Positions 2,722 to 63,036 of a stretch of 64,000 nt of DNA are shown in pieces. The DNA is taken from the NCBI RefSeq assembly GCF_019320115.1, contig NC_089586.1, positions 3,992,804-4,056,803 of the forward strand, written 5' to 3'. The translations under genes and the position numbers were made by a program. This DNA is from Miscanthus floridulus (lineage: Eukaryota; Streptophyta; Magnoliopsida; Poales; Poaceae). Each line of letters opens with the position of its first letter. Position 1 is the first letter of the stretch. The notes beneath the pieces are model-generated. The model was given only the letters and a program-made list of their open reading frames with translations. It had not been told where the DNA came from and searched no databases.

Positions 2722-2770
2722 AGGAACAAGACGGGGCTTTCAGAACTCAACCATGAAGTGCTTGGGGGCT

Positions 2771-24354: not shown

Positions 24355-25433
24355 TTCATTTTGAGCTCATTATTCTCCTTTAAAAGGTTAGTCTCACAAG
24401 ACATAGAAGTAGAACAAGCATCTATATGTGAGGAACATGTCATATCTAATAAATCATCACAAGACGTGGATATATGCTTCTTGCCTATATCACAAGGGTT
24501 AGCAACAGCATGTAATTGATCATTTAACCCAAGTGATGAGCTCTCACTAGTTTTAATCTTTTCATTAGAAAGCTCTTTAGTGAGAAAAGCATGGTCTTGT
24601 ACCAAGTTATTATGAGCAACACTAAGTTCCTCATTAGCCAATTTTAGCTCCACATGTGAACAAGTAGTAACATAAAGTAGATGCTTTTGTTGTTCACATG
24701 TTTTCTTTGGAAAAGAGTTTTCATTTTTCAATTTCTCGGTTTTAGCCATCTCTTTTTCTAAAGCTTTGATCATACAACCATATCTATCTACAAGCTCCTC
24801 ATATAAATCAAGATTAATCACATTTGCATTGGATACCTTTGTGTCACCTTGTGACATAAAGCAATGTGGTGATGGAGAGCTTGTAGAAGCAATATCATCC
24901 GAGCATGATCCATCATCATTACCATCAAGTATGCATGGAGTATCCTCTTCATTGGCATCACTTGAGGCATCATCATCATCAATCTTGTCAAGTGAACTTG
25001 TAGTGGATCGATCATCATCATCACTTGACCATGAGGTGGAGCAATCTTCAACAATCACCAAAATGTGGTCATGCTCAACATCCTCATGTGCATCTTCCTT
25101 AGGCTTATCCTCCTTCTTGAACTTGTCATCATTCCATGTGGAGGAGTCACTGAAGGTGTGCTTGATTGATTCCCACAATTCATGAGAGGTTCCTTTATGG
25201 ATCACCTTGTAAAACAACTCAAAGCTCAAAGCATCCATTAGAAATAAATAAGCATCGGAATCAAGTTCAAAGAGAACCTTTTGAGCTTTGGTTAGATTTG
25301 TATGGTCCAAGACATGGTTGAGACCACTTGTGACAACCCACCAAAACTTAGGTCTCTTTGCATGAAAATGGTCAAACGTATGATGTTTCCACCGTGCAAA
25401 TTGTGTGCCATAAAAAATGTGTGTCACGCTCAT
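24351..25433 (-). pseudogene. Copia (SIRE/Maximus-like) gag, N-terminal and central part
   Basis: A 360-codon frame starts MSVTHIFYGTQFARWKHHTF and contains a capsid-like helical segment (DHTNLTKAQKVLFELDSDAY, then ELFYKVIHKGTSHELWESIK) matching the copia gag (UBN2-type) pattern. An acidic, Ser/Asp-rich stretch at about residues 125-190 and a charged coiled-coil-like region at about 215-290 follow. The PBS lies 56 bases upstream of the ATG. The gene is broken at its 3' end by a register shift into 23983-24354, and pol is absent. Long SIRE-type gags run to several hundred residues, so length fits. Confidence 0.75.
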
Positions 25434-27398: not shown

Positions 27399-29289
27399 TG
27401 AAATGTCCTAATGGCTAGAGGGGGGGTGAATAGCCTAATAAAAATTTCTACAACAACACTTAACCAAATGGTTAGACAATTATGAGGCAAAGCGAGTGTT
27501 GCGCTAGCCTACTCAAAATGCAAGCCACTTACCACAATTCTAGTTTAGATAGTGTCAATTCACACAAGATCAATGACACTACCCTATGTTAGTGTGCTCT
27601 CAAAGGCTAACTAAAGAGCCACACCAACCAAGCATGCAAGCTCTCACAACTAGCTACACTAAAGAGCTTGTCAACTAGTTTGCGGTAGAGTAAAGAGAGT
27701 GATCAAGAGGGTTATACTGCCGTGTAGATGAATGAACCAATCAATCACGAAGATGAATAACAATGATGACCAATCACCTCGGAATCAATGATGAACACAA
27801 TGATTTTTACCGAGGTTCACTTGCTTGCCGGCAAGCTAGTCCTCGTTGTGGCGATTCACTCACTTGGAGGTTCACGCGCTAATTGGCTTCACACGCCAAA
27901 CCCTCAATAGGGTGCCGCACAACCAACACAAGATGAGGATCACACAAGCCACGAGCAATCCACTAAAGTACCTTTTGGCTCTCCGCCGGGGATAAGGTCA
28001 AGAACCCCTCACAATCACCACGATCGGAGCCGGAGACAATCACCACCTCCACTCGATGATCCTCGCTGCTCCAAGCCATCTAGGTGGCGGCAACCACCAA
28101 GAGTAACAAACGAAATCCGCAGCAAAACACGATCACTAAGTGCCTCTAGATGCAATCACTCAAGCAATGCACTTGGATCACTCCCAATCTCACTATGATG
28201 ATGAATCAATGATGTAGATGAGTGGGAGGGCTTTGGCTTAGCTCACAAGGTTGCTATGTCAATGAAAATGGCCAAAGATTTCAGCCACAGCCGGCCATGG
28301 GGCTATAAATAGAGCCCCAATCAAATAGAGCCGTTATACCCCTTCACTGGGCAAAACACGCTCTGACCGGACGCTCCGGTCATACTGACCGGACGCTGGC
28401 CCTCAGCGTCCGGTCGCCCGATGGACGCCACATGTCATCGCCTTCAAATGCTGTTCATCAGATTCCAATGGCTATGAAGCTGACCGGATGCTCTGGTCAA
28501 AACTGACCGGACGCTGAAGCCCCAGCGTCCGGTCGTTTCCAGTAAGCTCCCCGAGGCATGTTTTTCCGACCGGACGCGTCTGGTCCACCTTGACCGGACG
28601 CAGACCAGCGTCCGGTGCTCAACCCTACCCACTGTGCCGTCTGACAGCTCGACCGGACGCAGCCCTTCAGCGTCCGGTCGCTGAGTGACCTAGCGTCCGA
28701 TCAGTAGACCGACGCTAGCATCAATTCGATCAACTCCATTTCAACTCTAACTTCTTCACCCTTGCTCCAATGTGCCAACCACCAAGAATTTTGCATCCGG
28801 CGCAATAGAAAATAGACATTTCATTTTTCCAAAAGCGCCGAATCCATCTCAACCCTACAAACACCTTGTGCACATGTGTTAGCATATTTTCACAAATATT
28901 TTCAAGGGTGTTAGCACTCCACTAGATCCTAAATGCATATGCAATGAGTTAGAGCATCTAGTGGCACTTTGATAACTGCATTCCGATACGAGTTTCACCC
29001 CTCTTAATAGTACGGCTATCAAACCTAAATGTGATCACACTCTCTAAGTGTCTTGATCACTTAAAACAAAATAGCTCCTATGGTTTATACCTTTGCCTTG
29101 AGCTTTTTGTTTTTCTCTTTCTTCATTTCAAGTTTAAGCCCTTGATCATCGCCATGCCATCACCATTGTCATGCTATGATCTTCATTAGCTTCTCTACTT
29201 GAAGTGTGCTACCTATGTCATGATCACTTGATAAACTAGGTTAGCACTTAGGGTTTCATCAATTCACCAAAACCAAACTAGAGCTTTCA
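27399..29289 (-). repeat. Solo LTR of a SIRE/Maximus-like copia element, TSD ACCTT
   Basis: The plus strand reads TGAAATGTCCTAATGG at 27399 and ends CTAGAGCTTTCA at 29289, giving TG...CA ends on both strands. ACCTT flanks it at 27394-27398 and 29290-29294. There is no PBS, PPT or internal region beside it, so it is a solo LTR of 1,891 bp left by recombination between two LTRs. It reads minus, by comparison with the copia LTR at 18413-20343. Confidence 0.9.
28365..28710. repeat. GACCGGACGC / GCGTCCGGTC array inside the solo LTR
   Basis: CTGACCGGACGC and CAGCGTCCGGTC alternate about ten times in opposite orientation, separated by 10-60 bases. The result is a set of short inverted repeats in the LTR. 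The same array, more decayed, occupies 52630-53310 in the second solo LTR. Confidence 0.8.
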
Positions 29290-33690: not shown

Positions 33691-34243
33691 GATACTATTG
33701 AGGATTTTGAAGATTTATAATTAGTAATTAATCAATTAATCGGCCTATATAAATGAAAAGATGATACTTTGGAGGAGTATTTTGACATTGTCAGTCTAGC
33801 AGCAGTGTGCTTCGTCATTATTCAAAAGGAGAATTAGTTATTATTCGGAGGTGGATTTGGCAATGTTACGGAGAGACATGTTAATAAATTCTGATTAAAA
33901 TTACAACATTGATACTAAAAGCCGATGAGATATGTCTATCGGCTACATGTTATTCAGGTAGATTTGATGCCAAGTTAATTATGGAGAAGATTGACATGAG
34001 AAAGGAGGCACGTGGGATCAAGACAGAGCTCACTTCAGATAGGATATGCATTGGTAATGGATACCTTCTTTGTTCTCAACATGGCTTCCAGAATTACGAA
34101 CTGATTAAGCTGATAGCCTGATAACGCATCGACGACTTCAAGCAGTTGTTTTCCTAAGGGACAGAAGTGACCAAGAAAAAAGGAGAAGTTGTTTAGGGAA
34201 GCATATACATGTCTAGTAAAATTCAAAACCAAGAAGAAGTCAG
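33691..34243. other. Unclassified old repeat DNA
   Basis: Holds CCGATGAG and TATCGGCTAC phrases that recur right of the Tekay insertion (49500 onward: AGCCGATGGGG, ATCGGCT), so both sides are probably one older element. No gene recognised. Confidence 0.35.
34239..34243. repeat. Target site duplication GTCAG (left)
   Basis: GTCAG directly precedes the LTR at 34244 and is repeated at 48999-49003 after the right LTR. Confidence 0.9.
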
Positions 34244-37200
34244 TGTAACAGAACCGACCAATTATATGAAATTAAGTAAGAAAATCATCCGCCAGAGCAG
34301 ACGATTTAGCAAACTTAAGCCCGTATAACCCGGTAGTCCGTGAAATCATGAAGGATTTCAAACCAACTTCCATTCCAGCCAAGATCGTAATAAGTTTAGC
34401 GGTCACCATCACATATTACATAAAAGTTCACAATCACCAGTACATCAGAGTTTCAACATAGTTATTACAAAACCTGTTTGAATAAAAGTAGCGGAAGTCA
34501 TTTGTTCAAACCACACACACTCACACGGAGTTTAAATATAGTGCCAGCGAATGATCATCTCCAACAAAAGCATCAGATGAGACGTAAGGAATGACCATGC
34601 CCATGGTCCTAAGCATCACCCATCGCAGGATAAAGGCAGTTGATACAGTAGCCGTAATACATCTGCCCATCTACAACAAGTGGGAATAAAACCCTGAGTA
34701 CGAGAAGGTACTCAGCTAGACTTACCCTACATAACCAAAAATAAATGACACCAAGGATTATGAAGGGCTTTATAGTAGGGTAGCCGACTCATTTGCAAAA
34801 AGAAGCATTTTTAGTATTTCAAGAACCTTTCAAAAAGCATTATTGCCAAGTTAATTATTATTAACCTGCCGACTAGATTTGCACCTATACTAGAGTAAAC
34901 ATGTGATTAAGCAGATAATGATAACCAATGATCATTAAACAACTTCCATACTGTCATATTCATTATAACTGTCTAAGTGTTCCATAACATTTACTACGAT
35001 GAAGTAACTCAAGTCAAGTGCTCACTATCCAGGAGCGATGGCGATTCGAATCGATTCCTAACCAGCTAGTGATTTATTCCTTACACAAACCTCACTCACC
35101 CGCTAAAGTGAGATATTGATTACCGAGTCAACTTTCTAGGAATCTCGAGTTTGCCAGGAACCACATGTACCTGGGGGCCGACCGACTGCACTTTGGTCTT
35201 ATCATCCTGCCCCCGTGTCCTACCATACCTGCTCCGGCACAGTGCGTTGCGGGCAATCTACTCGGCCTGAAAAATCTCCCAGCTTCGCGGTCGGAAGGTA
35301 CTTTATCCGGCCAGCTAAATGTAAGGCATGCGTTCAACATGACTCGAGGCCCAACAACGGTCGGTCCTTAATCGACACAGACAGAAAGCACTACAGTCCA
35401 AAACTCTGTAAGTCTCCGTCCGGTCTCAACTTCATTTAACACTTAGTTATACCATGACTTCATAGTCATCCAAATAGATCCAGGTAACCACCTATAGCTC
35501 GCAGGTGATAGGAAATCACCTAACTTCTACCGGTCTAAGCCAGCTAAGCATTGACTCGACTGCGGATACCAGGGTAACAAGGATATAGTATAACAAAGGT
35601 AAACAAGGTATAATGCAGCAACGGTTGCAAACAACTCCTGAACGTAATGCATCAATTAAAGTAAAGCATTTAATTAATAATTGCAAACCGGGAGAAAAAT
35701 GCTCTGGGGCTTGCCTCTCTCGAAGGAGCTCGGACGGTGATCGGGGCACTCCGGAAGTTCCTCAACGTCCTCCTCGTCGGCTTCCGGCACTTCCTACGGC
35801 TGCACCTTGAACTGCTCCTCGGGCTCCTTGGGTATAACGACTGGGTTCTCGGTTTGCGATCCTGTATGATGCAATGCGCGTAAGTGCTTATGCAAACAGT
35901 GCATCGAAGGAGATGAATGCAATGGATATGTTTAAATGCAAGGTAGTCAACATCATCCAAGAAAATATACTACAAGCACATGTCATCTACTGCATTCTCT
36001 TCTACTACTAATATGTTTAAGGTGACACACCTTATCAAATGCTTCAAAGATACACCAAAGCTATTATTATTAACTAATCTTGTATTAAAGATGATTATTT
36101 TATTTCCTTTTAAATTAGGGCTACAACAGCAATCTATATTTCTGGTGCTTATAAAAATCTGAGAAAATTACAGTAGCATGGTACTACTCTAATTAGACTA
36201 CCATCAGATTTTCATGATATTTGAATGAGTGGATTAGCCTACACAAAAATCACAAGCTATGGCATGATTTTATACATAAAAATACTTTGAACTGTGAAAA
36301 GTGTCAAACAACAGAAGTAATATTTTTCCTAGGTTCTTCATAGCATATAATGACTGTACAAAAATTGTCACATGCATGTTTTATACAAATTTGCTCTCTA
36401 GCTAAAATAACAAAAATCAGCCATTAAAGGTACTTGAACTACATCTAAAAATTTTCCCCCAGCACATGTATGAAACATATATTTCCTAGGAAGTACATGA
36501 CATAAGAAGATTAACAAACTTGGAATCATATTGTTCTGAAGACTATAGATTTTTCTACATATTTTTTAAGTTATCAGCAATATTCATAATTAAATAAAAT
36601 TCTACAGCAAAGTATCTCAAAAATGTCATGCAATAATTTTCCCAAGTAGATCTGATGATAAGGAACCTAGCAAAATTTGTTCCAACAGATTTGGAGCTAA
36701 TAGGAGTACACAAACATTTTCCAAAGCATTTAAATAGAATTCTGAAAAATCATTTTTGAAATCCCTTTTAAAAGTCAGACGACGAAATACTGGGTGCACC
36801 CGGTGCTGTGCACCCGGATCCGATCTAGGGCGCTGACGAGTGGGCCCCCACGGTCAACGGCCCCCACCTATCGGTCAGACCAAGACAGGGGCGGCGCTGA
36901 CCGGCCAGCTCTCGCCGATGGCGAGCCAGCCGGTGATGTGATCACCACCAGTAGCTCACCCGCGATGAGGCGAACACGGTGCACCAAGAGAAGGCATAGG
37001 AGGAGCTCGGGATAGGGCTCGACGACGCGCATGGCGTAGCGGCGGCGCTGCTCCCGACGGCCGGCCATCTCCGGCCGGGAAGGGGCGCGAAAGGTGGTAC
37101 GGGAGCTTCACCGAGCTCGTGCAGTGGTCGTGCATGTGAAACGGTAGCTAGAAGAAGGACAGAGGGTGAGGTCCATGGAGCAGAGCACTCCAGTGAGCTC

Positions 37201-38289
37201 GGCCACAACTCCAGCGAGAGATTCCTAGGGAGAGGGAGCTTCTCACGGCTTACCGAGGTGAGCACGAGGTGCGCGATGATGAGTCGGAGATGCGGGCGAG
37301 ATGGAGGGTTCAATGGCGAGCTAGGATGGCTAGGCGAGCCAAATCCGGCGAGGGAGCTGGTGGCGGCCGGTGGCGGGTGCATACGCGGGTGCTGTCTGAG
37401 CGAGAGGCGAAGGGAGGAGCAGGAAATGCGATGCCGGGCGAGCTCTGCGGGAGCTTAAGCAGTGGCCAGCAGTGCCAGAGCTGCCGCGGTGCGTGGACAC
37501 AGTGTTAGGCCACCATCGACAGGTGGCGCCACTTGGCGAGCAAGCCCTGACGCGGTCGGGGGCGTGGTGCGGCGACGGGCGCTACGCGCGGCGCTGGGCT
37601 GGGCCGAGCGAGGCGAGGCGCGCGAGCGGCGGGCGCTGCTGGGCCGACTCGCGAGGTGGGCTGGCGCATTGGGTGGGCGAGGCGCGCGGCTGGCGAGGAC
37701 GCAGGCCAGGCCGGCTTCGGCAGGCGGGCCAGAAGCGAGGCGGCGGCCCGCGAAGGAGGAAAATCCTTTTTCCAAATATATTTTCAAGGAATTTTTAAAT
37801 GCCCTCTTTTAAATATTATTTTGAGCAAGAAAATGACCTCTTTTGAAAATGTACCAAAAATAAAAGTTGTTTAGAATTTAATTCTCTACAACTTTGCTTT
37901 TATGACCACAGCCAAATTCTTTCTAGATTTTAAATTGTAAGATCAAAGTCCACGTTTAGCTCAAAACCCTAATTTTGGGAATTATTTTTTGAAGCCAAAT
38001 TTTGAATTAATTTGAATACAAACATTGCTCCAAAAATTGAACTAAACATTGCTAGATGATTTACAATAGTAGCCAAACATGTTTTACTAACCTAGCAAGA
38101 AAAATTCAGGGCAAAACAATTCTTAACTAGGTGTATGCAGCATTCAGGTTTCACGCATGTTTCAGATGTTTCAAAGTAATGTTTCAATTGTTATTCACAT
38201 GATTAGGCATGTATGATTTGGATGCTTGATGATGCATGATATGTGTGATTTGCAGTGCCTAAATGCAGGCATAACACCGGGGTGTTACA
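34244..38289 (-). repeat. Tekay 3' LTR (4,046 bp)
   Basis: On the minus strand it begins TGTAACACCCCGGTGTTATG at 38289 and ends GGTCGGTTCTGTTACA at 34244. It is co-linear with the right LTR over its full length with only scattered substitutions, mostly transitions in the parts I compared. 36790-37750 is GC-rich and open on both strands, which explains several long ORFs there that I do not accept as genes. Confidence 0.92.
35674..35862 (-). pseudogene. Conserved LTR short ORF, copy in the 3' LTR
   Basis: Behind CATCATACAG|GATCGC the minus frame reads GSQTENPVVIPKEPEEQFKV, hits TAG at 35794-35796, continues EVPEADEEDVEELPECPDHR and ends LPVCNY at TAA 35674-35676. The sister LTR has CAG at that site, so the stop arose after insertion. 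Confidence 0.45.
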
Positions 38290-38647
38290 GCCCTCCCCCC
38301 TTATAAAAATCTCGTCCCGAGATTTGGGTTATGAACCATTTGTTATAAAATTCTTCATAAGCTTTTTGCAGATACTCTCCTGTTTCCCAAGTTACATCTC
38401 CCTCATCATGATGATGCCACTGTATCTTATAGGTTTTCACCACACTATTCTGAGTAGCACGTTCCTTCATGTCTAACACTCGGACTGGTTGTTCACGATA
38501 CACCAAATCCGATTTGAGTTGGATACCTCGAGGTTTTATTCTTTCCTCTAGAACACGCAAACATTTCTTGAGATGTGATACATGGAAAACTGGGAAAACG
38601 GTGCTCATTGTGTCAGGTAACTCTAACTTGTAGGCTACCAGACCTCT
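38285..38647 (-). pseudogene. Tekay integrase C-terminus with chromodomain
   Basis: This last part of the gag-pol frame reads VFHVSHLKKCLRV (end of the integrase C-terminal barrel), then a chromodomain-like segment of about 50 residues (PVRVLDMKERATQNS, YKIQWHHHDEGDVTWETGEY, LQKAYEEF). Chromodomains of this type steer chromovirus integration to modified chromatin. Of the aromatic cage, the Trp of IQW and the Trp of TWE are visible, but the first position is Val, as in the group II chromodomains reported for Tekay-type elements. The frame passes through the polypurine tract and stops at TAA 38285-38287, made by the first bases of the LTR. The preceding TGA at 38648-38650 separates it from the rest of pol. 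Confidence 0.85.
38290..38302 (-). other. Tekay polypurine tract
   Basis: Minus strand AAGGGGGGAGGGC lies directly before the 3' LTR. It is also coding, translated as the last residues (KGGGL) of the integrase frame. Confidence 0.9.
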
Positions 38648-38650
38648 TCA

Positions 38651-39775
38651 TTCTAAGATCTTGTACGGTCCTACGAATCTCACAGCAAGCTTCCTTTGGA
38701 CTCCGAACCTTTTCTTCTTCATTGGCGTGAGTTTCAGATAAACATAGTCACCAACTTCAAACACAAGGGGTCTCCTTCTTCTATCTGCATAGCTTTTCTG
38801 ACGTGATTGGGCAGCTTTCATATTCTGCTAAATAATATGAACTTTCTTCTCGGCTTCTTCTACAAAGTCAATGCCATAATACCTTCTATCTCTAGGCTCG
38901 ACCCAATTCAATGGTGTTCTACATTTTCTGCCATATAAAGCTTCGAATGGGGCCATCTTGATGCTTTCTTAATAACTATTATTATAAGAAAACTCAGCTA
39001 ACGGTAACCATGACTCCCATGATCCCTTAGAAGACAATACACAGGCTCTTAACATATCTTCCAAAACAGCATTCACTCGTTCAGTCTGACCATCTATCTG
39101 AGGATGATAAGCGGTACTACGAATCAAACTAGTTCCTAAGCCTTTGTGTAAGTGTTCCCAAAAGTGAGCCATGAACTGTGAGCCTCGATCAGATACTATG
39201 GTCTTTGGTATACCATGCAATCTCACAATTTCTGCGATATACTTCTCGGCATATTGAGGTGGTCGATAATCTGTTTTGACCGACAAGAAATGAGCGGTCT
39301 TGGTAAGACGGTCCACAATTACCCAAATCGAATCATGTCCTTTTTGAGTAGTGGGCAAACCCATGATAAAATCCATACTGATATCGTCCCACTTCCAACT
39401 AGGGACTAATAAGGGTTGCAACATACCAGCAGGTTTCATGTGAATGGCTTTCACTCGACAACATGTGTCACATCTGACAACATATGCTGTAATTTCTTTC
39501 TTCATTTTGGTCCACCAATAGCGAGATCTTAATTCTTGATACATCTTACTACTTCCGGGATGGATAGATAGCTTAGAAAGGTGAGCTTCATCCATGAGTT
39601 TATTCCTAAGCTCTCGATCCTTGGGAACCACAAGACGGTTGTCAAACCACAACACGCCCTATTCATCCACTTTAAAGTGTTGAGATGACTTCTCTTTTAT
39701 TTTCTCTTTGATGTGGAATATCCCCTTATTGGTTTTCTGGCCTTCTATTATATTACTTTCCAAAGAGCAACTAAT
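38651..39775 (-). pseudogene. Tekay integrase (zinc-binding and catalytic domains)
   Basis: The frame shows the HHCC zinc-binding motif (EAHLSKLSIHPG then VVRCDTCCRVK). The catalytic DDE residues are Asp in MDFIMGLP, Asp in VSDRGSQFMAHFW and Glu in GQTERVNAVLED. The GPY-like barrel region with FEVGDYVYLKL and GPYKILE comes next. Integrase inserts the cDNA into host chromatin. In-frame stops: TAG 39659-39661 just before the zinc domain, TAA 38969-38971 after AEFSYNNSY, and TAG 38828-38830. There is no frameshift relative to RT upstream or the chromodomain downstream. Confidence 0.9.
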
Positions 39776-41440
39776 CTAAATACTATGTAACACAGCAGGA
39801 TGCATTAGATCGAACCCATCTTCAAGTAATGGCTGCACATTCAAGAAATGTGACTTTCTGCTCAAAGCATCTGCCACTACATTGGCTTTACCAGGATGAT
39901 ATTGCACATTCAAGTTGTAATCCTTTATCAATTCCAACCATCTGCGCTGTCTCATGTTTAGCTCCGGTTGGGTAAAGATATACTTAAGACTCTTATGATC
40001 TGTGAAAATATTGCACACATTACCAAGTAGATAATGTCTCCAAATTTTGAGGGCGTGCACAACTGCAGCAAGTTCAAGGTCATGTGTTGGATAGTTGACC
40101 TCGTGCTTTCTCAATTGTCGTGATGCATAAGCAATGACTCTCCTTTCTTGCATAAGAACACAGCCCAATCTAGTCTTCGATGCGTCGCAAAACACATCAA
40201 ATGGTTTCTCGATATCTGGTTGTGCTAGAATAGGAGCAGTGGTCAACAGTTTCCGCAACGTGTGGAAAGCTACTTCACACTCCTCTGTCCACACAAACTT
40301 GTGATCCTTCTGTAGGAGGCTTGTCATCGGTTTGGCGATCTTTGAAAAGTCTGGTATAAAGCGACGGTAATAACCGGCTAGTCCTAAGAAACTTCTAATC
40401 TCAGGAACTGTGGTCGGTGTTTTCCAATTCATAACTTCTTGCACCTTACTTGGGTCGACTAAAACTCCATTCTCTGACAGAATGTGACCAAGGAAAGGAA
40501 CTTCCTTCAACCAGAATTCGCATTTGCTAAACTTAGCATACAATTGATGATCTCTAAGTCTGGTCAAGACAGTTCTCAGATACTCTTTGTGATCTTTCTT
40601 GTTCTCGGAGTACACCAGAATGTCATCGATGAACACTACCACAAACTTATCCAACTCTGGCATGAAAACTATATTCATCAAAAACATAAAGTATGCAGAA
40701 GTATTTGTCAAGCCAAAGGACATGACAAGATACTCATACAACCCGTATCTGGTGGAAAATACAGTTTTCGGTATATCCTGTGGCCTAATCTTGATCTGAT
40801 GATAACCGGATCTCAAATCTATTTTTGAGAACACCTTGGCCTTGGATAATTGGTCAAACAGAACATCAATATGTGGCAAGGGATACTTATTCTTGATGGT
40901 CACAGCGTTGAGTGGCCTATAATCTACGCACATTCTCAACGTGCCCACTTTCTTCTTTTTCACAAACAAAGCGGGACATCCCCATTCAGACTTGCTTGGT
41001 CGTATAAACCCCTTTTTTGACAAATCTTCTAATTGCTTCTTCAGCTCAGCTAACTCATCTGGAGGCATCCGATAGGGTCTTCTTGAAATCGGAGCCGTTC
41101 TAGGGACTAGCTCAATTCCAAACTCAATCTCCCTATCTGGTGGAAGACTAGGTAGCTCATCTGGGAATACATCCGGGAATTCACACACTACCAGAATCTG
41201 ATGAATAGGAATGACTACCGTAGCACATATAACACTTATCAGGTCTGTTCTCTGAGGCAATGGTACTCGGAAAGTACCCTCACCTAGGGGATCCTTAAGG
41301 GTAAGTACTCGACTTCCAGTATCTATGACTACTCCCCAATCCTTTATCCAATTCATCCCTATAATGACATCCAAGACTAACCCAGGCATAACTATCAAGT
41401 TCACTTGGAACTTCCTATTACCTAATTCAAGGGTTGCCCC
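39776..41440 (-). pseudogene. Tekay reverse transcriptase and RNase H
   Basis: A 542-codon open stretch holds the reverse transcriptase with [34 protein letters not shown] and the catalytic [12 protein letters not shown] (IDD form of YxDD). RNase H follows with [38 protein letters not shown] and [10 protein letters not shown]. Together these copy element RNA into cDNA. The stretch is ended by TAG 39776-39778 and is cut off from protease by TGA 41441-41443. Catalytic residues look intact, so this part decayed least. Confidence 0.93.
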
Positions 41441-41443
41441 TCA

Positions 41444-41690
41444 AACCATCTGGTTGGTCAAAACATCAGCCCCTACTGAACTTATACGGTACCCATAACC
41501 CAATTCTGTGCATAGTTGTCCATGTTTCTATGCAAATGCTTGACTCATAAAAGAATGCGATGATCCAGAATCAAATAGAACAACTACAGGGTTTTCGTTG
41601 ATAGGAAACTTACCAGCAGTGATGGGCTCTCCCTCTGGAATTTCATCCACTGTTGTACTATGTACTCTAGCATTATAAGTCTGCTGCTTC
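41444..41690 (-). pseudogene. Tekay aspartic protease
   Basis: VVVLFDSGSSHSFMSQAFA contains the DSG active site of retroviral-type proteases, which cut the polyprotein. TAG at 41528-41530 interrupts the domain soon after the active site, and the frame then reads on (ISSVGADVLTNQMV) to TGA 41441-41443 before joining the RT part. Same register as gag and pol. Confidence 0.85.
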
Positions 41691-42814
41691 TTCTTGGGCG
41701 GGTACAGACAAAACCTCGAGAAATGGCCGGGTTGATCACAGTTATAGCAGGGTCCTCTTATTGTCCCGACAGACCCCATAGCTCCCTTGGAACTGCCTTG
41801 TACCGCAGTTGCGGCTGCTTTGTTGGGCTATACTGCCATCTTGTATGACTTTTGAGGTCCACGGAAATTCTGACTTCTTTGCTGAGGTGGCCGGAACCTA
41901 GCACCAGGTGTCGATGGGCGATATGGGGGACGACCTCCCATAGGGGCTCTAGCTTGAGACGGCCCACCTTCAAAGGCTCTCTTGTGTGTCTTGGCTATGG
42001 TGCTGGCATTGTTATTCTTCTCCTGCTTCAGACAGTCGCTCATGAAGTCATTGAATCTGACGCGGTTGTTGGTACCAACATGCTTCATCATTTTTGGATT
42101 GAGACCCCTCTTAAAACTAGCTATTCTTTTAGCATCTGTGTCAACCATGTCGGGAGCATAGCGACACAAGTTGTTGAAGGCATGCAGGTATTGCGTCACG
42201 GTCTTGGTGCCCTGGTTCAATGCCAGAAACTCTCCCAACTTCATTTCGGTCAGCCTTGGTGGAATATAGGCTCCACGGAAGGCCTCAGCAAACTCTCTCC
42301 AAGAAATCTGAGCATTTGGAGGGAAGGTGGTGCGATGGTGCTTCCACCACATTCCCACTGGTCCCTGCAATTGAAGTGCAGCATACTCCGTCTTTAGAAC
42401 CTCAGTCATTCTCAACACACGGAATTTATCTTCCATCGTGTTGATCCATTCCTCTGCATCGAGTGGCTCTGTTGCTTCCTTGAATACTGGCGGCCTGGTG
42501 TCCATGAAATCTTTGAAGCTGCTATATTGGTTCACTCCCATGCCACCACCTTGATTGTTACCACGTTGAACGTTGTTGGCGATGGTTCAAAGAAGATCCT
42601 CCATGTTCTTCTGGGATTGTTCCACGTTGCGCTGACTCTTGAGCAGCTGTGCGAGGAACATCTCGGGGGTAAACGGGGGAGGAGGTGGCAAATGTGGTTC
42701 ATGGGGAGGTTCATTGTTGTTGCCGTGGTTTCCACCACCACCACCAGCCCCCACACCGTTAGCACCGGGCTCAGCGGCCTCATACGTGGTTCGGCGAGTG
42801 TTTGTCATCTGCAT
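41691..42814 (-). pseudogene. Tekay gag (capsid and CCHC nucleocapsid)
   Basis: The frame opens MQMTNTRRTTYEAAEPGANG at 42814 and continues through a Gly/Asn-Pro-rich N-terminus. It then shows the gag capsid region with WINTMEDKFRVLRMTEVLKT, LQGPVGMWWKHH and SWREFAEAFRGAYIPPR, which is the classic 'retrotransposon gag' pattern, and the knuckle CYNCDQPGHFSRFC (CX2CX4HX4C). Gag builds the virus-like particle and packages RNA. Stops: TGA 42587-42589 and TAG 41828-41830. The start is chosen as the first Met of the frame. The reading frame is the same one used by all of pol. Confidence 0.9.
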
Positions 42815-43173
42815 ATTTCAGCCACAAGTAACGATTGAGTGAAGCTGTAATAATTGCGAGTGAAGGAAAAATTATGACGTACTGAATTTACTGGAGAGAA
42901 TAAATTCATGCAATAAAACAGAGGCACAACAATCGCATCCCAATTAAAACAACGGCACTTAATCGAATTACTTCAACGGCAAATATTGCGTCCATACAAT
43001 TAAATTGCCAGCATACCTACACTGGACTTTTTATGCGTTCAGATATCGCATTCGAAAATCAGTTCCAACCACATGCCAAGTCTCATACGTTCGAAGCAAC
43101 ATACAATAGGTTACATGCCAACAAAAGAAAGGTTATCGCGGCAGGACCTAGATACTAGCGCAAGGCAACTAGC
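42815..43173 (-). other. Spacer between the extra ORF and gag
   Basis: About 360 bases between the end of the upstream ORF and the gag ATG. No domain in any frame. Whether gag is reached by reinitiation, splicing or a separate transcript cannot be told. Confidence 0.4.
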
Positions 43174-44163
43174 CTACTCCTCGGGGCTATCGTCGGGATC
43201 GGAGATGTCACCATCGCCCACAGGTGAAACTACAGGCTCGTCCTTGTTGTCGTTGTCGACGTCCATGCCAACTGCGTCTGGTGGAGCATATGGGCCAACC
43301 CCATTGTAGAGCACGTGAAACTCCTCGTGCAGGTAGCCATTGTATTCCTCTAGCTCATCGACCCTCTGCAGCAGAAGGTTTCTTGCGTTCTAGGCTTCAT
43401 TCCTTTCCTGAACCAACTGTCCAATCATGCGGTCTGCATTGTTGTTGGCTTGAGTCAACGTATGCACCCGCTGCATAGCTCTATCACCTCTCTCAACCGC
43501 CTGATCTCGCTGTAGGTTCATATTAGCCAACTGCTCCTGCAAGCTAGCTATAACACGTGCCTGTCTCTTCTTCTGCTTTTTCCCTTTTAGCTTATCCTCA
43601 CTACGCAAGCCAGTCAAAGTCCAATAGGTACTCTCGAGACCCTCATATGCTCTGATGGCGGCGAACATAGCACTCATTGCCTGGTTGTCGCTAGCCTGTC
43701 CTTCAGCTGGACCTCTGACCAATGCACTTCCCTGAGGCTGAACCCAAATGGCATCACGAGGATCATCCCTAGGAAAAGTACCAGCTAGAGCTGCTGCAAG
43801 CTCATTGGGAAATCTGCTCATAATGTCCCTGATGACACAGAAGGCTGCTCCCTCTGCACCCTCAGCTAGAGTGCGACCCTCAAACTCCAAATGCCAACCA
43901 TCCCAATCTGGAGCATCACCGAGAGCAGGAACCGTGATCTCCACCACTGCAAGTCCATCCTCTGCTAACTGGCTCTCATTCCAAGAGTACACTGGCTCTT
44001 GACCCTTTGGGTACCCCACATCATGGAGCACTCTCCAAAGCAAAGTTGGCATGCCAAACTTGCTCAAGAAGGTGTCCATGGTGCGGTGCTCCCTCAGGGC
44101 CAATGGACATCGGGGTGCTCTTCCTCCGGTGGACTTACGGGTGGTCTGCTTCGTGCGGGCCAT
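43174..44163 (-). pseudogene. Tekay additional ORF with histone H3-tail-like N-terminus
   Basis: From the ATG at 44163 (context CAGATGG) the frame reads M-ARTKQTTRKSTGGRAPR. Against the histone H3 tail, 15 of these 17 residues are identical; the differences are A7 to T and K14 to R. R2, K4, R8, K9, S10, T11 and R17 are kept. What follows is not a histone fold: residues 25-190 are unfamiliar (MDTFLSKFGMP, PVYSWNESQLAEDGLAVVEI, PDWDGWHLEFEG). Then come a basic patch KLKGKKQKKRQ (about 191-201), a coiled-coil-like region (about 200-285) and an acidic tail ending DGDISDPDDSPEE. The frame is 329 codons plus TAG at 43174, with one internal TAG (43390-43392) in an otherwise coding-like stretch. It lies between the PBS and gag on the same strand. 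Longer in-frame starts (44241) exist, but only the Met at 44163 would expose the H3-like end after Met removal. Function unknown. Confidence 0.75.
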
Positions 44164-44939
44164 CTGTAGCAAAAGTTCTTTTATTACCTCGGGGAAACAT
44201 ATTTTAGGTGATACAACTTTTATCAATATGAGATAATCCATTTATAAGGGGAGGAATGCTTGAGATGAATGAAATGCACAAGTAACATGATGTATGTACA
44301 TGCCGTACGTTCTCACAAACTTAGGAAATAAATAATTTCTAACGACTAATTCGATGGCATACAACGATCTCTCAAATACGTAGCTAATACGTTCTACACA
44401 ATAGCGTTGTTATGTACCTGCAGAAGATCCATTTCAGCCCAATTCCCAATGAATGCATAAAAAGCAGTAACTTTTATCTACACGCTCTATACGAATCCCC
44501 AGATACGTGTACAACGGTAGTAACTACCCGAACTATCGTCCTATTGACGGCATCGCCTCCACAGACGGAAGACCCATACATGAGATACCTTTGTAAAACA
44601 TGCATAGAACATGTAATTACTCCAGCATCATATAAGCATTCACCCTAGATCGGCGGTGTATCCAATCATGCTCTCACAACTCACACTTACCGATGCGTAG
44701 AGGTAAATGATCCATTCATTACCACTCAAACAAGTGGCACTCATACAATAGCACGCCGTATGAGCGACGAAAGAGAAATATGATGCAAGAACCCCAAGTC
44801 AGTACTTAATTAAGCCACCTAGAGTCCTTAACTGGGCATAGAGGATATGACCACTGGCACACTTTATGGTTTGGAAATCACGTTTTTCAAATGCCTTTTT
44901 ATTTTAAATACACTTGTGAATAGTAACATGCTAAACCAT
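44164..44939 (-). other. Tekay 5' leader
   Basis: Between PBS and the extra ORF. No domain found. The minus strand just before the ATG reads TTTTGCTACAG, which resembles a plant 3' splice site, so the ORF may be reached by splicing from the leader. Confidence 0.4.
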
Positions 44940-44951
44940 GCTCTGATACCA
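44940..44951 (-). other. Tekay primer binding site (initiator Met tRNA)
   Basis: Minus strand TGGTATCAGAGC lies two bases from the 5' LTR end, complementary to the 3' end of tRNA-iMet. Confidence 0.92.
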
Positions 44952-44953
44952 GC

Positions 44954-47900
44954 AGTAACAGAACCGACCAATTATACGAAATTAAGTAAGAAAATCATCC
45001 GCTAGAGCAGACGATTTAGCAAACTTAAGCCCGTATAACCCGGTAGTCCGTGAAATCACGAAGGATTTCAAACCAACTTCCATTCTAGCCAAGATCATAA
45101 TAAGTTTAGCGGTCACCATCACATATTACATAAAAGTTCACAATCACCGGTACATCAGAGTTTCAATATAGTTATTACAAAACCAGTTCGAATAAAAGTA
45201 GCGGAAGTCATTTGTTCAAACGACACACACTCATGCGGAGTTTAAATATAGTGCCAGCGAATGATCATCTCCAACAAAAGCATCAGATGAGACGTAAGGA
45301 ATGACCATGCCCATGGTCCTAAGCATCACCCATCGCAAGATAAAGGCAGTTGATACAGTAGCCATAATACATCTGCCCATCTGCAACAAGTGGGAATAAA
45401 ACCCTGAGTACGAGAAGGTACTTAGCTAGACTTACCCGACATAACCAAAAATAAATGACACCAAGGATTATGAAGGGCTTTATAGTAGGGTAGCTGACTC
45501 ATTTGCAAAAAGAAGCATTTTTAGTATTTCAAGAACCTTTTAAAAAGCATTATTGCCAAGTTAATTATTATTAACCTGCCGACTAGATTTGCACCTATAC
45601 TAGAGTAAACATGTGATTAAGCAGATAATGATAACCAATGATCATTAAACAACTTCCATACTGTCATATTCATTATAACTGTCCAAGTGTTCCATAACAT
45701 TTACTACGATGAAGTAACTCAAGTCAAGTGCTCACTATCCAGGAGCGATGGCGATTCGAATCGATTCCTATCCAGCTGGTGATTTATTCCTTACACAAAC
45801 CTCACTCACCCGCTAAAGTGAGATATTGATCACCGAGTCAACTTTCTAGAATCTTGAGTTTGCCAGGAACCACATGTACCTAGGGGCTGACCGACTGCAC
45901 TTTGGTCTTATCATCCCGCCCCCGTGTCCTACCACACCTGCTCCGGCACAGTGCATTGCGGGCAATCTACTCGGCCCGAAAAAACTCCTAGCTTCGTGGT
46001 CGGAAGGTACTTTATCCGGCCAGCTAAATGTAAGGCATGCGTTCAACATGACTCGAGGCCCAACAATGGTCGGTCCTTAATCGACACAGACGGAAAGCAC
46101 TACAGTCCAAAACTCTACAAGTCTCCGTCCGGTCTCAACTTCATTTAACACTTAGTTATACCATGACTTCATAGTCATCCAAACAGATCCAGGTAACCAC
46201 CTATAGCTCGCAGGTGATAGGAAATCACCTGACTTCTACCGGTCTAAGCCAGCTAAGCATTGACTCGATTGCGGATACCAGGGTAACAAGGATATAGTAT
46301 AACAAAGGTAAACAAGGTATAATGCAGCAACGGTTGCAAACAACTCCTGAACGTAATGCATTAATTAAAGTAAAGCATTTAATTAATAATTGCAAACCGG
46401 GAGAAAAATGCTCTGGGGCTTGCCTCTCTCGAAGGAGCTCGGACGGTGATCAGGGCACTCCGGAAGTTCCTCAACGTCCTCCTCGTCGGCTTCCGGCACT
46501 TCCTGCGGCTACACCTTGAACTGCTCCTCGGGCTCCTCGGGTATAACGACTGGGTTCTCGGTTTGCGATCCTATATGATGCAATGCGCGTAAGTGCTTAT
46601 GCAAACGGTGCATCGAAGGAGATGAATGCAATGGATATGTTTAAATGCAAGGTAGTCAACATCATCCAAGAAAATATACTACAAGCACATGTCATCTACT
46701 GCATTCTCTTCTACTACTAATATGTTTAAGGCGACACACCTTATCAAATGCTTCAAAGATACACCAAAGCTATTATTATTAACTAATCTTGTATTAAAGA
46801 TGATTATTTTATTTCCTTTTAAATTAGGGCTACAACAGCAATCTATATTTCTGGTGCTTATAAAAATCTGAGAAAATTACAGTAGCATGGTACTACTCTA
46901 ATTAGACTACCATCAGATTTTCATGATATTTGAATGAGTGGATTAGCCTACACAAAAATCACAAGCTATGGCATGATTTTGTACATAAAAATACTTTGAA
47001 CTGTGAAAAGTGTCAAACAACAGAAGTAATATTTTTCCTAGGTTCTTCATAGCATATAATGACTGTACAAAAATTGTCACATGCATATTTTATACAAATT
47101 TGCTCTCTAGCTAAAATAACAAAAATCAGCCATTAAAGGTACTTGAACTACACCTAAAAATTTTCCCCCAGCACATGCATGAAACATATTTTTCCTAGGA
47201 AGTATATGACATAAGAAGATTAACAAACTTGGAATCATATTTTTCTGAAGACTATAGATTTTTCTACATATTTTTCAAGTTATCAGCAATATTCATGATT
47301 AAATAAAATTCTACAGCAAAGTATCTCAAAAATGTCATGCAATAATTTTCCCAAGTAGATCTGATGATAAGAAACCTAGCAAAATTTGTTTCAACAGATT
47401 TGGAGCTAATAGGAGTATACAAACATTTTCCAAAGCATTTAAATAGAATTCTGAAAAATCATTTTTGAAATCCCTTTTAAAAGTCAGACGACGAAATACT
47501 GGGTGCACCCGGTGCTGTGCACCCGGATCTGATCCAGGGCACTGACGAGTGGGCCCCCATGGTCAACGGCCCCCACCTGTCGGTCAGACCGAGACAGGGG
47601 CGGTGCTGACCGGCCAGCTCTCGCCGACGGCGAGCCAGCCGGCGGTGTGATCACCACCAGTAGCTCACCCACGACGAGGCGAACACGGTGCACCAAGAGA
47701 AGGCACAGGAGGAGCTCGGGATAGGGCTCGACGACGTGCATGGCGGAGCGGCGGCGCTGCTCCCGATGGCCGGCCATCTCCGACCGGGAAGGGGCGCGAA
47801 AGGTGGTACGGGAGCTTGACCGAGCTCGTGCGGTGGTCGTGCGCGCGAAACAGTAGCTAGAAGAAGGACGGAGGGCGAGGTCCATGGAGCGGAGCGCTCC

Positions 47901-48998
47901 GGTGAGCTCGGCCACAACTCTGGCGAGAGATTCCTAGGGAGAGGGAGCTTCTCATGGCTTACCGAGGCGAGCACGAGGTGCGTGATGATGAGTCGAAGAT
48001 GCGGGCGAGATGGAGGGTTCAACGGCAAGCTAGGATGGCTAAGCGAGCCAAATCCAGCGAGGGAGCTGGTGGCGGCCGATGGCGGGTGCGTACACGGGTG
48101 CTGTCCGAGCGAGAGGCGAAGGGAGGAGCAGGAAATGCGATGCCGAGCGAGCTCTGCGGGAGCTTAAGCAGTTGCCAGCAGTGCCAGAGCTACCGCGGCA
48201 TGTGGACGCGGTGTCAGGCCACCATCGACGGGTGGTGCCACGCGGCGGGCAAGCCCTGACACGGTCGGGGGCATGGCGCGGCGACGGGCGCTGCGCACGG
48301 CGCTGGGCTGGGCCGAGCGAGGCGAGGCGCGCGAGCGGCGGGCGCTGCTAGGCCGACTCGCGAGGTGGGCTGGTGCGTTGGGCGGGTGAGGCACGCGGCT
48401 GGTGGGGACGCGGGCCAGGCCGGCTTCGGCAGGCGGGCCAGAAGCGAGGCGGCGGCCCGCGAAGGAGGAAAATCCTTTTTCCAAATATATTTTCAAGGAA
48501 TTTTTAAATGCCCTCTTTTAAATATTATTTTGAGCAAGAAAATGACCTCTTTTGAAAATGTACCAAAAATAAAAGTTGTTTAGAATTTAATTCTCTACAA
48601 CTTTGCTTTTATGACCACAACCAAATTCTTTCTAGATTTTAAATTGTAAGATCAAAGTCCACGTTTAGCTCAAAACCCTAATTTTGGGAATTAATTTTTG
48701 AAGCCAAATTTTGAATTAATTTGAATACAAACATTGCTCCAAAAATTAAACTAAACATTGCTAGATGATTTACAATAGTAGCCAAATATGTTTTACTAAC
48801 CTAGCAAGAAAAATTTAGGGCAAAACAATTCTTAAACAGGTGTATGCAGCATTCAGGTTTCATGCATGTTTCAGATGTTTCAAAGCAATGTTTCAATTGT
48901 TATTCACATGATTAGGCATGTATGATTTGGATGCTTGATGATGCATGATATATGTGATTTGCAGTGCCTAAATGCAGGCATAACACCGGGGTGTTACA
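44954..48998 (-). repeat. Tekay 5' LTR (4,045 bp)
   Basis: Starts on the minus strand TGTAACACCCCGG at 48998. Its last base is changed (GTTACT instead of GTTACA at 44954). Co-linear with the left LTR. It is followed on the right by GTCAG (48999-49003), completing the target duplication. Confidence 0.92.
46383..46571 (-). pseudogene. Conserved LTR short ORF, copy in the 5' LTR
   Basis: Same frame as the copy at 35674-35862 at a constant offset of 10,709. It carries CAG where the sister has TAG (46503-46505) but its own TAG at 46509-46511, where the sister has CAG. Each LTR therefore acquired a different nonsense change, and the ancestral frame was open. Confidence 0.45.
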
Positions 48999-49003
48999 GT
49001 CAG

Positions 49004-51646: not shown

Positions 51647-53806
51647 TTAAAGGTCCTAATATGGCTACAAGGGGTTGAATAGCCTATTTAAAAATCTATA
51701 AATCAACTAGAGCAATTTGATTAGTATGACAAATAGCGAAACACAAACTTGCTTTAGGTCTACAAGGGTTGCAAGCCACCTATTCAGCAATTCTAGTTAC
51801 TATGATCACTAGACACACAATTTGCTAAGTCACTACTCACTAAGAGCTCTCACACTTGCTACATTAAAGAGCTCCACTAGATGAACTTAAGCCACAAAGC
51901 AAGCTCTCAATTCTAGCTACACTAAAGAGCTTGCTACAACTAGTTTGCAGAAATATAAATGAGTAAGTAATGTGATTATACCACCACATAGAGGAGTGAA
52001 CCAATCACAAGATGAATACTAATTCAATTACCAGAAGAATACCAAAGGGCAAGAGACAACCAATGTTTTTCTCCTGAGGTTCACGTGCTTGTCGGCATGC
52101 TAGTCCCCATTGTGTCGACCAACACTTGGTGGTTCGGTGGCTAAGAGGTGTTGCAATAACCTCGTCCACATAATTGGACACCACAAGAACCTACCCACAA
52201 GTGAGGTAACTCAATGACACGAGCAATCCACTAGAGTCACCTTTCAGCGCTCCGCCGGGGGAGGCACAAGACCCATCACAATCACCGCGATCGGAGCTGG
52301 AGACAATCACCAACCTACGCTCGATGATCCTCGCTGCTCCAAGCCATCTAGGTGGCGGCAACCACCAAGAGTAACAAAAGAATCCCGTAGTGAAACCCGA
52401 ACAACAAGTGCCTCTAGATGCAATCACTTAAGCAATGCACTTGGATTATCTTCCAATCTCACAAAGATGTTGAATCAATGATGGAGATGTGTGGGAGGGC
52501 TTTGGCTAAGCTCACAATGTTGCTATGTCAATGCAAATAGCCAAGAGAGTGAGCTAGAGCCGGCCAAATGATATTTATGGACACCCCCAAATAATAGAGC
52601 TGTTGGCTCAATTATTGGGCTGACTACGAGACAACCGGACGCACCGGTCATGTATACCGGATGCGTCCTATGTGGTGATCAGACGTGTCTGGTCGCTGCA
52701 TCATCGCCACATGTCCTATTCAAATTGTTTTGCCATTCACGCCCAATGGCAATCTCTACGCACAGTAATATTGGTGACCGAACATGCTGTTAGAGAACGA
52801 CTGGACGCAAGAGACTCAACGTCTGATCAAGTCCAAAGAGCTCCTAGAGCCACTCTGGGCCGACTGGACGTGTTTGGTCACACCTGACCAGACGCTCCTA
52901 GCGTCCGATCAATTATAGCGCTGAAACCCGAGTCTACTGGTTCACACCGAACGTGTCCGGTGTGGCGACCAGACGCGTTCGGTCGCTGCGTCTGGTTGAG
53001 TCCAACGAGCTCCTAGAGCCGCTGAACTACGATTGGACATGTCCGGTGTGGCCGAACGGATGCACCCCTATGTTCAATCCTCTCTGGACCAACACCCGCA
53101 CCCCACATCACCTCGACCGAATGCTAAACAGTGATTGCTCAACGTCTGGTTACTGCTATGACCTAGAGTCCAGTCACTTCATCAACTCTGCCATGCCTGG
53201 CCAGAATACCAAACATGTTCAATATGGATATCGGAAGCGTCTGGTCACGTTGAGAAGATACCGGACGCGTCCGGTCCGCACATTGAATGCATCCGGTCAC
53301 CCCGTGACTAGCGCATTCAACTCCTTTTCAACTCTATCTTCTTTACCCTTGCTCAAATGTGCCAACCACTAAGTGTATCACCCTGTGCACATGTGTTAGC
53401 ATATTTTCACAAATGTTTTTAAGGGTGTTATCACTCCACTAGATCCTAAATACATATGCAATGAGTTAAAGCATCTAGTGGCACTTTGATAACTGCATTT
53501 TGATATGAGTTTCTCCCCTCTTAATAGTATGGCTATCAGTCCTAAATGTGATCACACTCACTAAGTGTCTCAATCACCAAAACAAAAAACTCCTATCAAG
53601 TTTCACCTTTGCCTAGAGCTTTTTGTTTTCCTTTCATCTTTTCCAAGTCTAAGCATTTAATCACCACCATGCTATCACCATCATCATGTTATGATCTTTA
53701 TGTGCTTCATCACTTGGAGTAGTGCTACCTATCTCATAATTACTTTGATAAACTAGGTTAGCACTTAGGGTTTCATTAATTCACCAAAACCAAACAAGAG
53801 CTTTCA
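51647..53806 (-). repeat. Second solo LTR of the SIRE/Maximus-like family, TSD GTGAC
   Basis: Begins TTAAAGGTCCTAATATGG (family start TGAAATGTCC, first G mutated) and ends CAAGAGCTTTCA at 53806. GTGAC flanks it at 51642-51646 and 53807-53811. Co-linear with 27399-29289, including CACGTGCTTG.CGGCA, GCTCCGCCGGGG and CCAAGAGTAACAAA landmarks. The 2,160-bp length is longer mainly in the CCGGACGC repeat zone (52630-53310), which is more decayed. No internal region remains. Confidence 0.85.
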
Positions 53807-62466: not shown

Positions 62467-63036
62467 CTATTTGGCCGAGAGCTGGGTCCCAATCCAAACC
62501 ATCTTTGTTGGGTCGGTGGGGTCGATTCCCACCGCCTTGGTTTCCTCGAGCGATCGGAAGGATATTAAGGAGGTTGGTTTGTTACATTCTGGGACTACCA
62601 GGATCAGTGATTCCCCAAGCCATGGGAGCTCGGATGAGTTGACGACCGCAGTGGTGAGCTTGTAGTGCTCGCGGTCGCACGTGAAGGCGTGCGAGAAGGC
62701 GCTGCTCATGGTGATGACATCGTTTGGTCCCGACATCTTCAACTTGAGGTAGGTGTAGTTGGGGATTGCCATGAATTTTGCATAGCATGGCTGCCCTAAG
62801 ATGGTGTGGTAGGACCCTAGAAAGTCCACCACTTCAAAGGTGAGGACCTCTGAGCAGAAGTTAGCTCGGCTGCTGAACGTGATGGGCAGGTCGATCTGCT
62901 CGAGAGGGTATGCCTGCGCTCCTAGGATCACTCCGTGGAAGGAAGAGCCCGCTAGGCGGAGCTCCGATCGAGGGATGCGTATGGCATCGAGGGTGTTGAT
63001 GTAGAGGATGTTGAACCCGCTACCTCCATCCATCAT
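62467..63036 (-). pseudogene. Tat aspartic protease region
   Basis: MMDGGSGFNILYINTLDAI carries the DGGS form of the aspartic protease active site common in Tat-type elements. LGSYHTILGQPCYAKF follows, the second conserved protease segment. The open stretch is 189 codons and ends at TAG just after TQLSAK. Confidence 0.85.

What the first reader, a model, noticed from the sequence alone, without database searches (positions are those of the whole stretch)
43174..44163. Retrotransposon ORF that begins with a histone H3 tail
Seen: directly after its Met the ORF reads ARTKQTTRKSTGGRAPR, identical to the H3 tail at 15 of 17 positions and keeping R2, K4, R8, K9 and S10. The rest has no histone fold; it has a basic patch, a coiled coil and an acidic end. 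The codons also resemble a plant H3 start (ATGGCCCGCACGAAGCAGAC), which suggests capture of an H3 5' end rather than convergence. Inference: an element-encoded H3-tail decoy could occupy writers, erasers or readers of K4 or K9, or be methylated itself, and so affect silencing or targeting. I do not know of this being described for Tekay elements, but I cannot search.
Basis: partly seen in the sequence, partly recalled or inferred. Interest (0 to 1): 0.92.

Follow-up and report, generated by a model that had tools for sequence, protein, structure and literature searches.

The report
Retrotransposon protein with histone-H3-like N-terminus
A high-copy grass jumping gene encodes an extra protein that starts with a close copy of the histone H3 tail joined to a fold resembling RNA-silencing proteins; evolution has kept that tail, above all the lysine used to mark silent DNA, so the element may be mimicking a histone to interfere with its own silencing.

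Summary
The H3-like start is real and is not chance. It is on the minus strand (44163 to 43390), in the extra ORF (ORF0) upstream of gag in a complete chromovirus-type LTR element (34244-48998, TSD GTCAG).

In the host genome all 48 close copies read (window included) keep K4 and K9. A query lacking the tail brought 30 old copies of other families; 29 still carry the tail, K9 in 29 of 29. Between families A and B the tail's commonest codons differ synonymously at 8 of 17 sites, nonsynonymously at none (w about 0.06). Among 47 tail-bearing proteins K9 is invariant, K4 is K or R in 46, and K14 and K18 are nearly always replaced. 45 of 48 copies have no in-frame ATG before the tail. A predicted dsRBD-like fold and a coiled coil follow.

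ORF0 of grass Tekay/Retrosat2 elements is published; from memory, a 2011 paper noted H3 similarity in grass chromovirus ORFs. Not found in the papers searched: that the tail is N-terminal, selected, K9-centred and joined to a dsRBD-like fold. Best mechanism: a histone mimic competing in the H3K9 silencing pathway (inferred, untested).

The parts
34244..38289 (-). 3' LTR of the element (4.05 kb)
   Evidence: 96.5% identical to 44955-48999 over 4046 columns; ends and 5-bp flank GTCAG read
44954..48998 (-). 5' LTR of the element (its TG end is changed at 44954)
34239..34243 (.). target-site duplication GTCAG, left copy
48999..49003 (.). target-site duplication GTCAG, right copy
44940..44951 (-). 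primer binding site TGGTATCAGAGC (initiator Met tRNA type, recalled)
   Evidence: sequence
38291..38300 (-). polypurine tract GGGGGGAGGG next to the 3' LTR
   Evidence: sequence
43390..44163 (-). ORF0 of this copy: 257 aa plus premature TAG at 43390-43392
   Evidence: homologs
44098..44163 (-). H3-tail-like start, Met plus 21 residues (MARTKQTTRKSTGGRAPRCPLA)
   Evidence: conservation and selection
43810..44073 (-). dsRBD-like domain, residues 31-118 (model topology a-b-b-b-a)
43555..43593 (-). basic patch KLKGKKQKKRQAR, residues 191-203
   Evidence: sequence
43396..43683 (-). long helix / coiled coil, residues 161-256
43174..43389 (-). C-terminal 71 codons of ORF0 left beyond the TAG, with the acidic end
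44164..44173 (-). 3'-splice-site-like motif TTTGCTACAG directly before the ORF0 ATG, kept between families while most positions further upstream are not
   Evidence: splicing itself not tested
41828..42817 (-). gag region in two open pieces (42587-42817 and 41828-42586) with a stop between; Retrotrans_gag in the second
41528..41827 (-). zinc knuckle and start of aspartic protease
39776..41440 (-). reverse transcriptase and RNase H
38969..39658 (-). integrase zinc-binding domain and core (core match below its curated cut-off)
38285..38647 (-). integrase C-terminus with chromodomain-like stretch (Pfam Chromo E 4.9e-04, below the curated cut-off)

Best explanation
ORF0 of this grass chromovirus-type LTR element encodes a protein whose N-terminus is a selected mimic of the histone H3 tail centred on K9, joined to a dsRBD-like fold, a basic patch, a coiled coil and an acidic end. 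Shown: the sequence architecture, the wide conservation of the tail, purifying selection on its codons between families, its position at the first in-frame ATG in most copies, and a model with dsRBD topology. Inferred: the protein is made and enters the nucleus, the coiled coil gives it several tails, and the tail serves as a substrate or ligand of the host's H3K9 pathway (SUVH writers; K4me0-K9me2 readers such as AGDP1 and SHH1; CMT3), competing with chromatin and weakening silencing of the element. The dsRBD-like fold may act on the RNA arm (DCL/DRB proteins).
Against: No binding, modification, expression or localisation data. T3, T6 and S10 are as conserved as the AGDP1 contacts although AGDP1 makes no specific contact with them. 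One subfamily lacks the tail (P0110, P0121, P0140, P0155), so it is dispensable at least there. In one clade K4 is R. Within close copies the tail pN/pS is 0.40, higher than 0.05-0.14 in most of ORF0, though few sites are involved and the copies were picked by protein score. Between families B and C the tail ratio is 0.27. 3 of 48 and 5 of 27 copies have an in-frame upstream ATG. The dsRBD-like domain has no KKxAK-type cluster before its last helix, so dsRNA binding is doubtful. No Foldseek match reaches E 0.001, and a sequence profile of the domain found no dsRBD in the PDB.
Confidence: 0.45

Rival explanations
1. The tail is a nuclear-import and nucleic-acid-binding arm: the H3 tail is a natural basic import signal (recalled) and would carry ORF0, with any bound RNA, into the nucleus; no mimicry of marks is involved.
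For: The tail is basic. Poaceae Tekay 5'aORF proteins were predicted nuclear (PMC11728184, passages and section 9).
Against: Lys and Arg are not interchangeable: K9 is K in 47 of 47 while site 14 is R in 40 and K4 is R in 13 of 47. A1, T3, T6, A7 and S10 evolve as slowly as or more slowly than the basic sites other than K9. A second basic patch already exists in this ORF.
Confidence: 0.22
2. Targeting: the mimic tail tethers the element's nucleoprotein or integrase to chromatin readers, or to its own integrase chromodomain, steering integration rather than relieving silencing.
For: The integrase ends in a chromodomain-like stretch; type II chromodomains lack part of the methyl-lysine cage and their partner is not identified (PMC6317226 passage).
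Against: No evidence of an ORF0-integrase contact; the chromodomain match is below its Pfam cut-off and was not typed as I or II by a tool.
Confidence: 0.15
3. Constraint on the DNA (splice acceptor and start context) rather than on the peptide.
For: The 10 bases before the ATG are 85-100% kept between families A and B, against 0-41% at 10 of the next 14 positions (ungapped).
Against: Inside the tail synonymous sites change freely (8 synonymous, 0 nonsynonymous), so the peptide is what is kept.
Confidence: 0.03
4. Passive relic of a captured H3 5' end without function.
For: One subfamily lives without it.
Against: dN/dS about 0.06 at dS 0.89 between families A and B; K9 without any inferred change on the tree.
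Confidence: 0.03

Closest known systems
ORF0 / 5'aORF of grass Tekay-type elements (Retrosat2, RIRE3, RIRE8, maize and sorghum homologs)
   Same: Extra ORF in sense upstream of gag; LTRs over 3 kb; reported only from grasses; divergent protein; long C-terminal helix and weak DRBM-like structure reported for maize and sorghum proteins (PMC3485330 sections 10 and 14; PMC11728184 section 9)
   Different: The word histone does not occur in either paper's main text; PMC3485330 assigned mostly hydrolase-type functions; here a selected H3-like N-terminus and a better supported dsRBD-like model. I did not compare this ORF0 with the Retrosat2, RIRE3 or RIRE8 sequences themselves
Grass chromovirus extra ORFs with partial H3 similarity, Steinbauerova et al. 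2011 Genetica 139:1543
   Same: From the recalled abstract: 5' extra ORFs of Poaceae chromoviruses, part of them partly similar to histone H3, probably from a host gene
   Different: Not held, so not read; as recalled, no functional or selection analysis of the tail
NS1 histone-mimic tail of H3N2 influenza virus (Marazzi 2012, seen through passages of the review PMC10222983)
   Same: A parasite protein with an H3-like tail that acts on a nuclear host factor (PAF1)
   Different: In an RNA virus, and its mimic is short and C-terminal (recalled); here about 21 residues at the very N-terminus, in an LTR retrotransposon, K9-centred and old in the family
dsRBD proteins of the plant silencing machinery (DRB4, DRB7.2, DCL4)
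   Same: Model topology a-b-b-b-a; among the best structural matches
   Different: Six ORF0 proteins scanned have no Pfam dsrm hit; no KKxAK-type cluster before the last helix

Membership tests
Histone H3 | N-terminal tail ARTKQTARKSTGG | tested here: met
   15 of 17 in this copy; H3 peptide found at E 5.7e-05
Histone H3 | Histone fold | tested here: not met
   H3 matches stop by residue 27; model shows a dsRBD-like fold and a long helix. It is tail-like, not a histone
LTR retrotransposon, Ty3/gypsy | LTR pair, TSD, PBS, gag, PR-RT-RH-INT order | tested here: met
Chromovirus | Chromodomain at integrase C-terminus | tested here: inconclusive
   Pfam Chromo E 4.9e-04, 20.4 bits against cut-off 25.1
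Tekay / Retrosat2 lineage | RT-INT phylogeny | not tested
   No reference RT set was used; the label rests on LTR length, ORF0 and the literature
Tekay / Retrosat2 lineage | ORF0 upstream of gag and LTRs over 3 kb | tested here: met
   ORF0 at 43390-44163 upstream of gag; LTRs 4.05 kb
dsRBD | a-b-b-b-a fold | tested here: met
dsRBD | Sequence family (Pfam dsrm) | tested here: not met
   No dsrm hit for six ORF0 proteins at E up to 1 (window) or 5 (five proteins)
dsRBD | dsRNA binding | not testable with these tools
   No KKxAK-type cluster in the aligned sequences, so binding is uncertain
Histone mimic | H3-like peptide kept by selection | tested here: met
Histone mimic | Binds or is modified by histone-tail factors | not testable with these tools
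   Needs experiments

The most novel reading that the evidence does not exclude
A family of grass LTR retrotransposons carries a dedicated H3K9 mimic: the N-terminal tail is methylated at K9 by the host's own SUVH enzymes and then soaks up K4me0-K9me2 readers (AGDP1, SHH1, CMT3), while the attached dsRBD-like domain engages the DCL/DRB side of RNA silencing, so one protein disarms both arms of transposon silencing and helped the element reach thousands of copies.
Probability: 0.25. Interest if true: 0.93.

Novelty: new variant of a known kind. Interest (0 to 1): 0.74.

Why it matters
Histone mimicry is known from viruses; a transposon-encoded, long-conserved H3 tail aimed at the very mark that silences transposons would be a direct case of a mobile element attacking heterochromatin. 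It would also give a function to ORF0, an abundant grass retrotransposon ORF of unknown role, and it makes a clear prediction (K9 dependence) that can be tested with a peptide and a transgene.

Tried and rejected
Rejected: (1) an upstream Met always buries the tail: 45 of 48 close copies and 22 of 27 others have no in-frame ATG before it. (2) chance or relic: codon data. (3) K4 as the main mimicked residue: K4 is R in one clade, K9 never changes. (4) histone fold: absent.

Led nowhere: viral contigs and genome contigs gave no confirmed relatives; the sequence profile of the domain found no dsRBD in the PDB; a GTAAGT in the leader (about -524) is kept in 44 of 48 copies, but the whole leader is about 97% conserved, so this says nothing. 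The phase-wise diversity of the upstream 78 bases is spoilt by indels and is not used. Answered paper searches listed no paper describing an H3 tail in these ORFs; only held papers were searched. Passages of PMC7264820, PMC11963269, PMC9289625, PMC11728184, PMC3485330, PMC6317226 and PMC12786077 do not link such an ORF to H3; PMC3701649 only cites the 2011 paper.

Not obtained: the host's own H3 genes as donor test, an RT tree, an ORF0-independent sample of family A, and genome copies of the tail-less subfamily. The H3 and tail-less searches were sent and not answered; the other two were not run.

Full report
What was checked. It lies on the minus strand: from 44163 it reads MARTKQTTRKSTGGRAPRCPLALREHR..., 15 of 17 residues identical to H3 after the Met. 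By sequence the only convincing match to a known protein is the H3 tail: phmmer gives an H3 peptide at E 5.7e-05 and a full-length H3 at 1.7e-04, aligned no further than residue 27 in the 60 rows shown; Pfam gives nothing above its cut-off.

The element. Two LTRs of 4.05 kb (34244-38289 and 44954-48998, 96.5% identical over 4046 columns), flanked by GTCAG on both sides, with TGGTATCAGAGC next to the right LTR and a purine tract next to the left one, show a complete element read on the minus strand. Order: 5' LTR, 790-base leader, ORF0, gag, protease, RT-RNase H, integrase, chromodomain-like end. Gag and pol are interrupted by stops in this copy. With a rate of 1.3e-8 per site and year (recalled) the LTR difference suggests an insertion roughly 1.4 million years ago. 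The genome has 2.68 Gb in 2420 contigs; its name is not given, and 'grass' is inferred from the element type. LTR length and ORF0 match the Tekay/Retrosat2 type (PMC3485330); I built no RT tree and did not align ORF0 with the published ORF0 sequences.

Relatives. One search of the protein collection gave 66 homologs, a profile search 362 of which the best 120 were listed, a search with residues 1-60 gave 20. Names such as 'hypothetical protein' and short contigs suggest gene-caller fragments of plant DNA in metagenomes; many start at an internal Met, so a missing tail there means nothing. Of the 164 proteins in hand, 47 carry the tail; with the window's own that makes 48. The analyses below use 47 sequences (46 proteins plus the window): 44 were picked by a pattern that required K at position 9, P0134, P0144 and P0147 were added by eye from the printed lists, and P0164 was missed. 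A later check without that requirement found P0164 (tail with K9) and no further protein with 7 or more of 21 tail residues. Six proteins have 15 or more residues before the core without a tail: two start inside the linker (P0072, P0088) and four belong to one subfamily with a short unrelated start (P0110, P0121, P0140, P0155). All three protein searches used queries containing the tail, which favours tail-bearing hits.

Conservation in proteins. Over the 47: A1 46, R2 43, T3 45, K4 33 (R 13, W 1), Q5 20 (L 25), T6 44, A7 44, R8 42, K9 47, S10 45, T11 41, G13 46, site 14 R 40 (K 2), P16 46, R17 35, site 18 K 0 (H 32, R 9), L20 47. In pairs whose residues 22-89 are under 45% identical, the tail is 74% identical, the linker 21%, residues 31-60 70%, later residues 21% (94 of 1081 pairs). 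On a tree built without the tail, parsimony changes per site average 4.3 in the tail, 7.8 in the linker, 2.9 in residues 31-60 and 7.3 later; K9 has none, K4 five. Site rates put K9 3rd lowest of 100, A1 4th, S10 6th, K4 41st, site 14 58th, site 18 89th. Several deep nodes of that tree are poorly supported.

Copies in the host genome. The ORF0 piece has 9023 first-look candidates, 148 scored, all at least 94% identical in protein. I read 48 of these 148, the window's own included (8 given by the search, 40 picked by hand down the list): K4 48 of 48, K9 48 of 48, R14 48 of 48, A7 43 (T 5, as in the window), R8 46 (H 2), one stop at Q5. ORF0 pN/pS is 0.09 over codons 1-256 (0.05 in 118-256, 0.14 in 31-117, 0.97 in 22-30, 0.40 in the tail). 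The copies were ranked by protein score, so these values are biased low, and the tail value rests on few sites.

A sample not chosen by the tail. Searching the genome with P0129, which begins after the tail, scored 128 of 13563 candidates at 53-63% identity and returned 30 loci. All 30 have stops inside. 29 of 30 keep the tail at 14 or more of 22 positions (L067 has most of it deleted); ATG in 27 of 29, K9 29 of 29, K4 29 of 29, site 14 R 26 and K 3. Against the 48 family-A copies, 22 family-B copies (L060, frame-shifted at its start, left out) give dN/dS 0.06 for codons 1-17 at dS 0.89; the 6 family-C copies give 0.13; B against C 0.27. The commonest codons of A and B differ synonymously at 8 of 17 sites and nonsynonymously at none. 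Decay after insertion inflates these ratios. So the peptide was under purifying selection while the families diverged. R14 is AGA in all three groups while other codons differ, which points to descent from one capture rather than repeated recent capture (inference).

Start of translation. The 10 bases before the ATG are 85-100% kept between families A and B, against 0-41% at 10 of the next 14 positions (ungapped comparison); for A against C the kept stretch is 9 bases. CAG precedes the ATG in 45 of 48 A copies and 24 of 29 others. 45 of 48 A copies and 22 of 27 others have no in-frame ATG between the preceding stop and the tail; in the window copy there is one at 44241. A 3' splice site just before the start codon is the natural reading but is not tested. 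The last 750 bases before the ATG hold 18-26 ATGs in any frame, so a spliced or otherwise processed mRNA seems needed.

Mechanism. K9 is never R, while K4 can be and K14 and K18 nearly always are replaced. A general basic tail would not show this. It fits a peptide that must be usable at K9 and need not be acetylated at K14 or K18. AGDP1, a plant K4me0-K9me2 reader, contacts A1, R2, K4, A7, R8 and K9me2 and makes no specific contact with T3, Q5, T6 and S10 (passages of PMC6208443); the family's free Q5 and basic site 4 fit, but T3, T6 and S10 are also conserved, so the match is partial. I favour a mimic that acts in the H3K9 pathway as substrate or competitor (0.45), with nuclear import (0.22) and targeting of integration (0.15) as rivals.

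What is known. ORF0 of Retrosat2, RIRE3 and RIRE8 and its absence outside grasses are published (PMC3485330, sections 10 and 14 read), as are nuclear predictions and the weak DRBM likeness (PMC11728184, section 9 and passages). I recall the abstract of Steinbauerova et al. 2011 as saying that part of the grass chromovirus extra ORFs were partly similar to histone H3; the paper is not held. The bare similarity is thus probably not new. The selection, the K9-centred pattern, the N-terminal position and the fusion to a dsRBD-like fold were not found in the held papers searched (calls listed under Tried and rejected).

Limits. One genome; metagenome proteins of unknown plants; no RNA or protein data; the donor H3 gene was not identified.

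Noticed in passing
27636-29289 and 51899-53806: Pairs of direct repeats (78-88% identical, about 24.3-24.5 kb apart) suggest an older LTR element into which the ORF0 element (34244-48998) inserted.
   Followed up: no
1492-3138: Direct duplication of 824 bases at 97.5% identity, with an inverted partial copy at 3183-3556.
   Followed up: no
44131-44139 (minus strand, codons of R8, K9, S10): The tail codons CGT AAG TCC of family A contain GTAAGT, a strong 5' splice-site-like sequence inside the tail; families B and C mostly have CGC AAG instead, so it is not general.
   Followed up: partly
42806-42813 (minus strand): A gag ATG (ATGACAAACACT) is directly preceded by TGCAG, like the ORF0 ATG; alternative acceptors for ORF0 and gag mRNAs are possible.
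   Followed up: no
P0063 against P0121: P0063 joins an H3-like tail to the domain of the otherwise tail-less subfamily, with nearly the same upstream leader as tail-less P0121: the tail may be exchanged between families by recombination.
   Followed up: partly
44241 (minus strand): This copy has an in-frame ATG 26 codons before the tail; at that exact place it is the only one of 48, and 2 other copies have an in-frame ATG elsewhere upstream.
   Followed up: yes
24351-25433 (minus) and 62467-63036 (minus): Open frames of 360 and 189 aa without a Pfam match at E 0.1; they look like pieces of other retroelements.
   Followed up: partly
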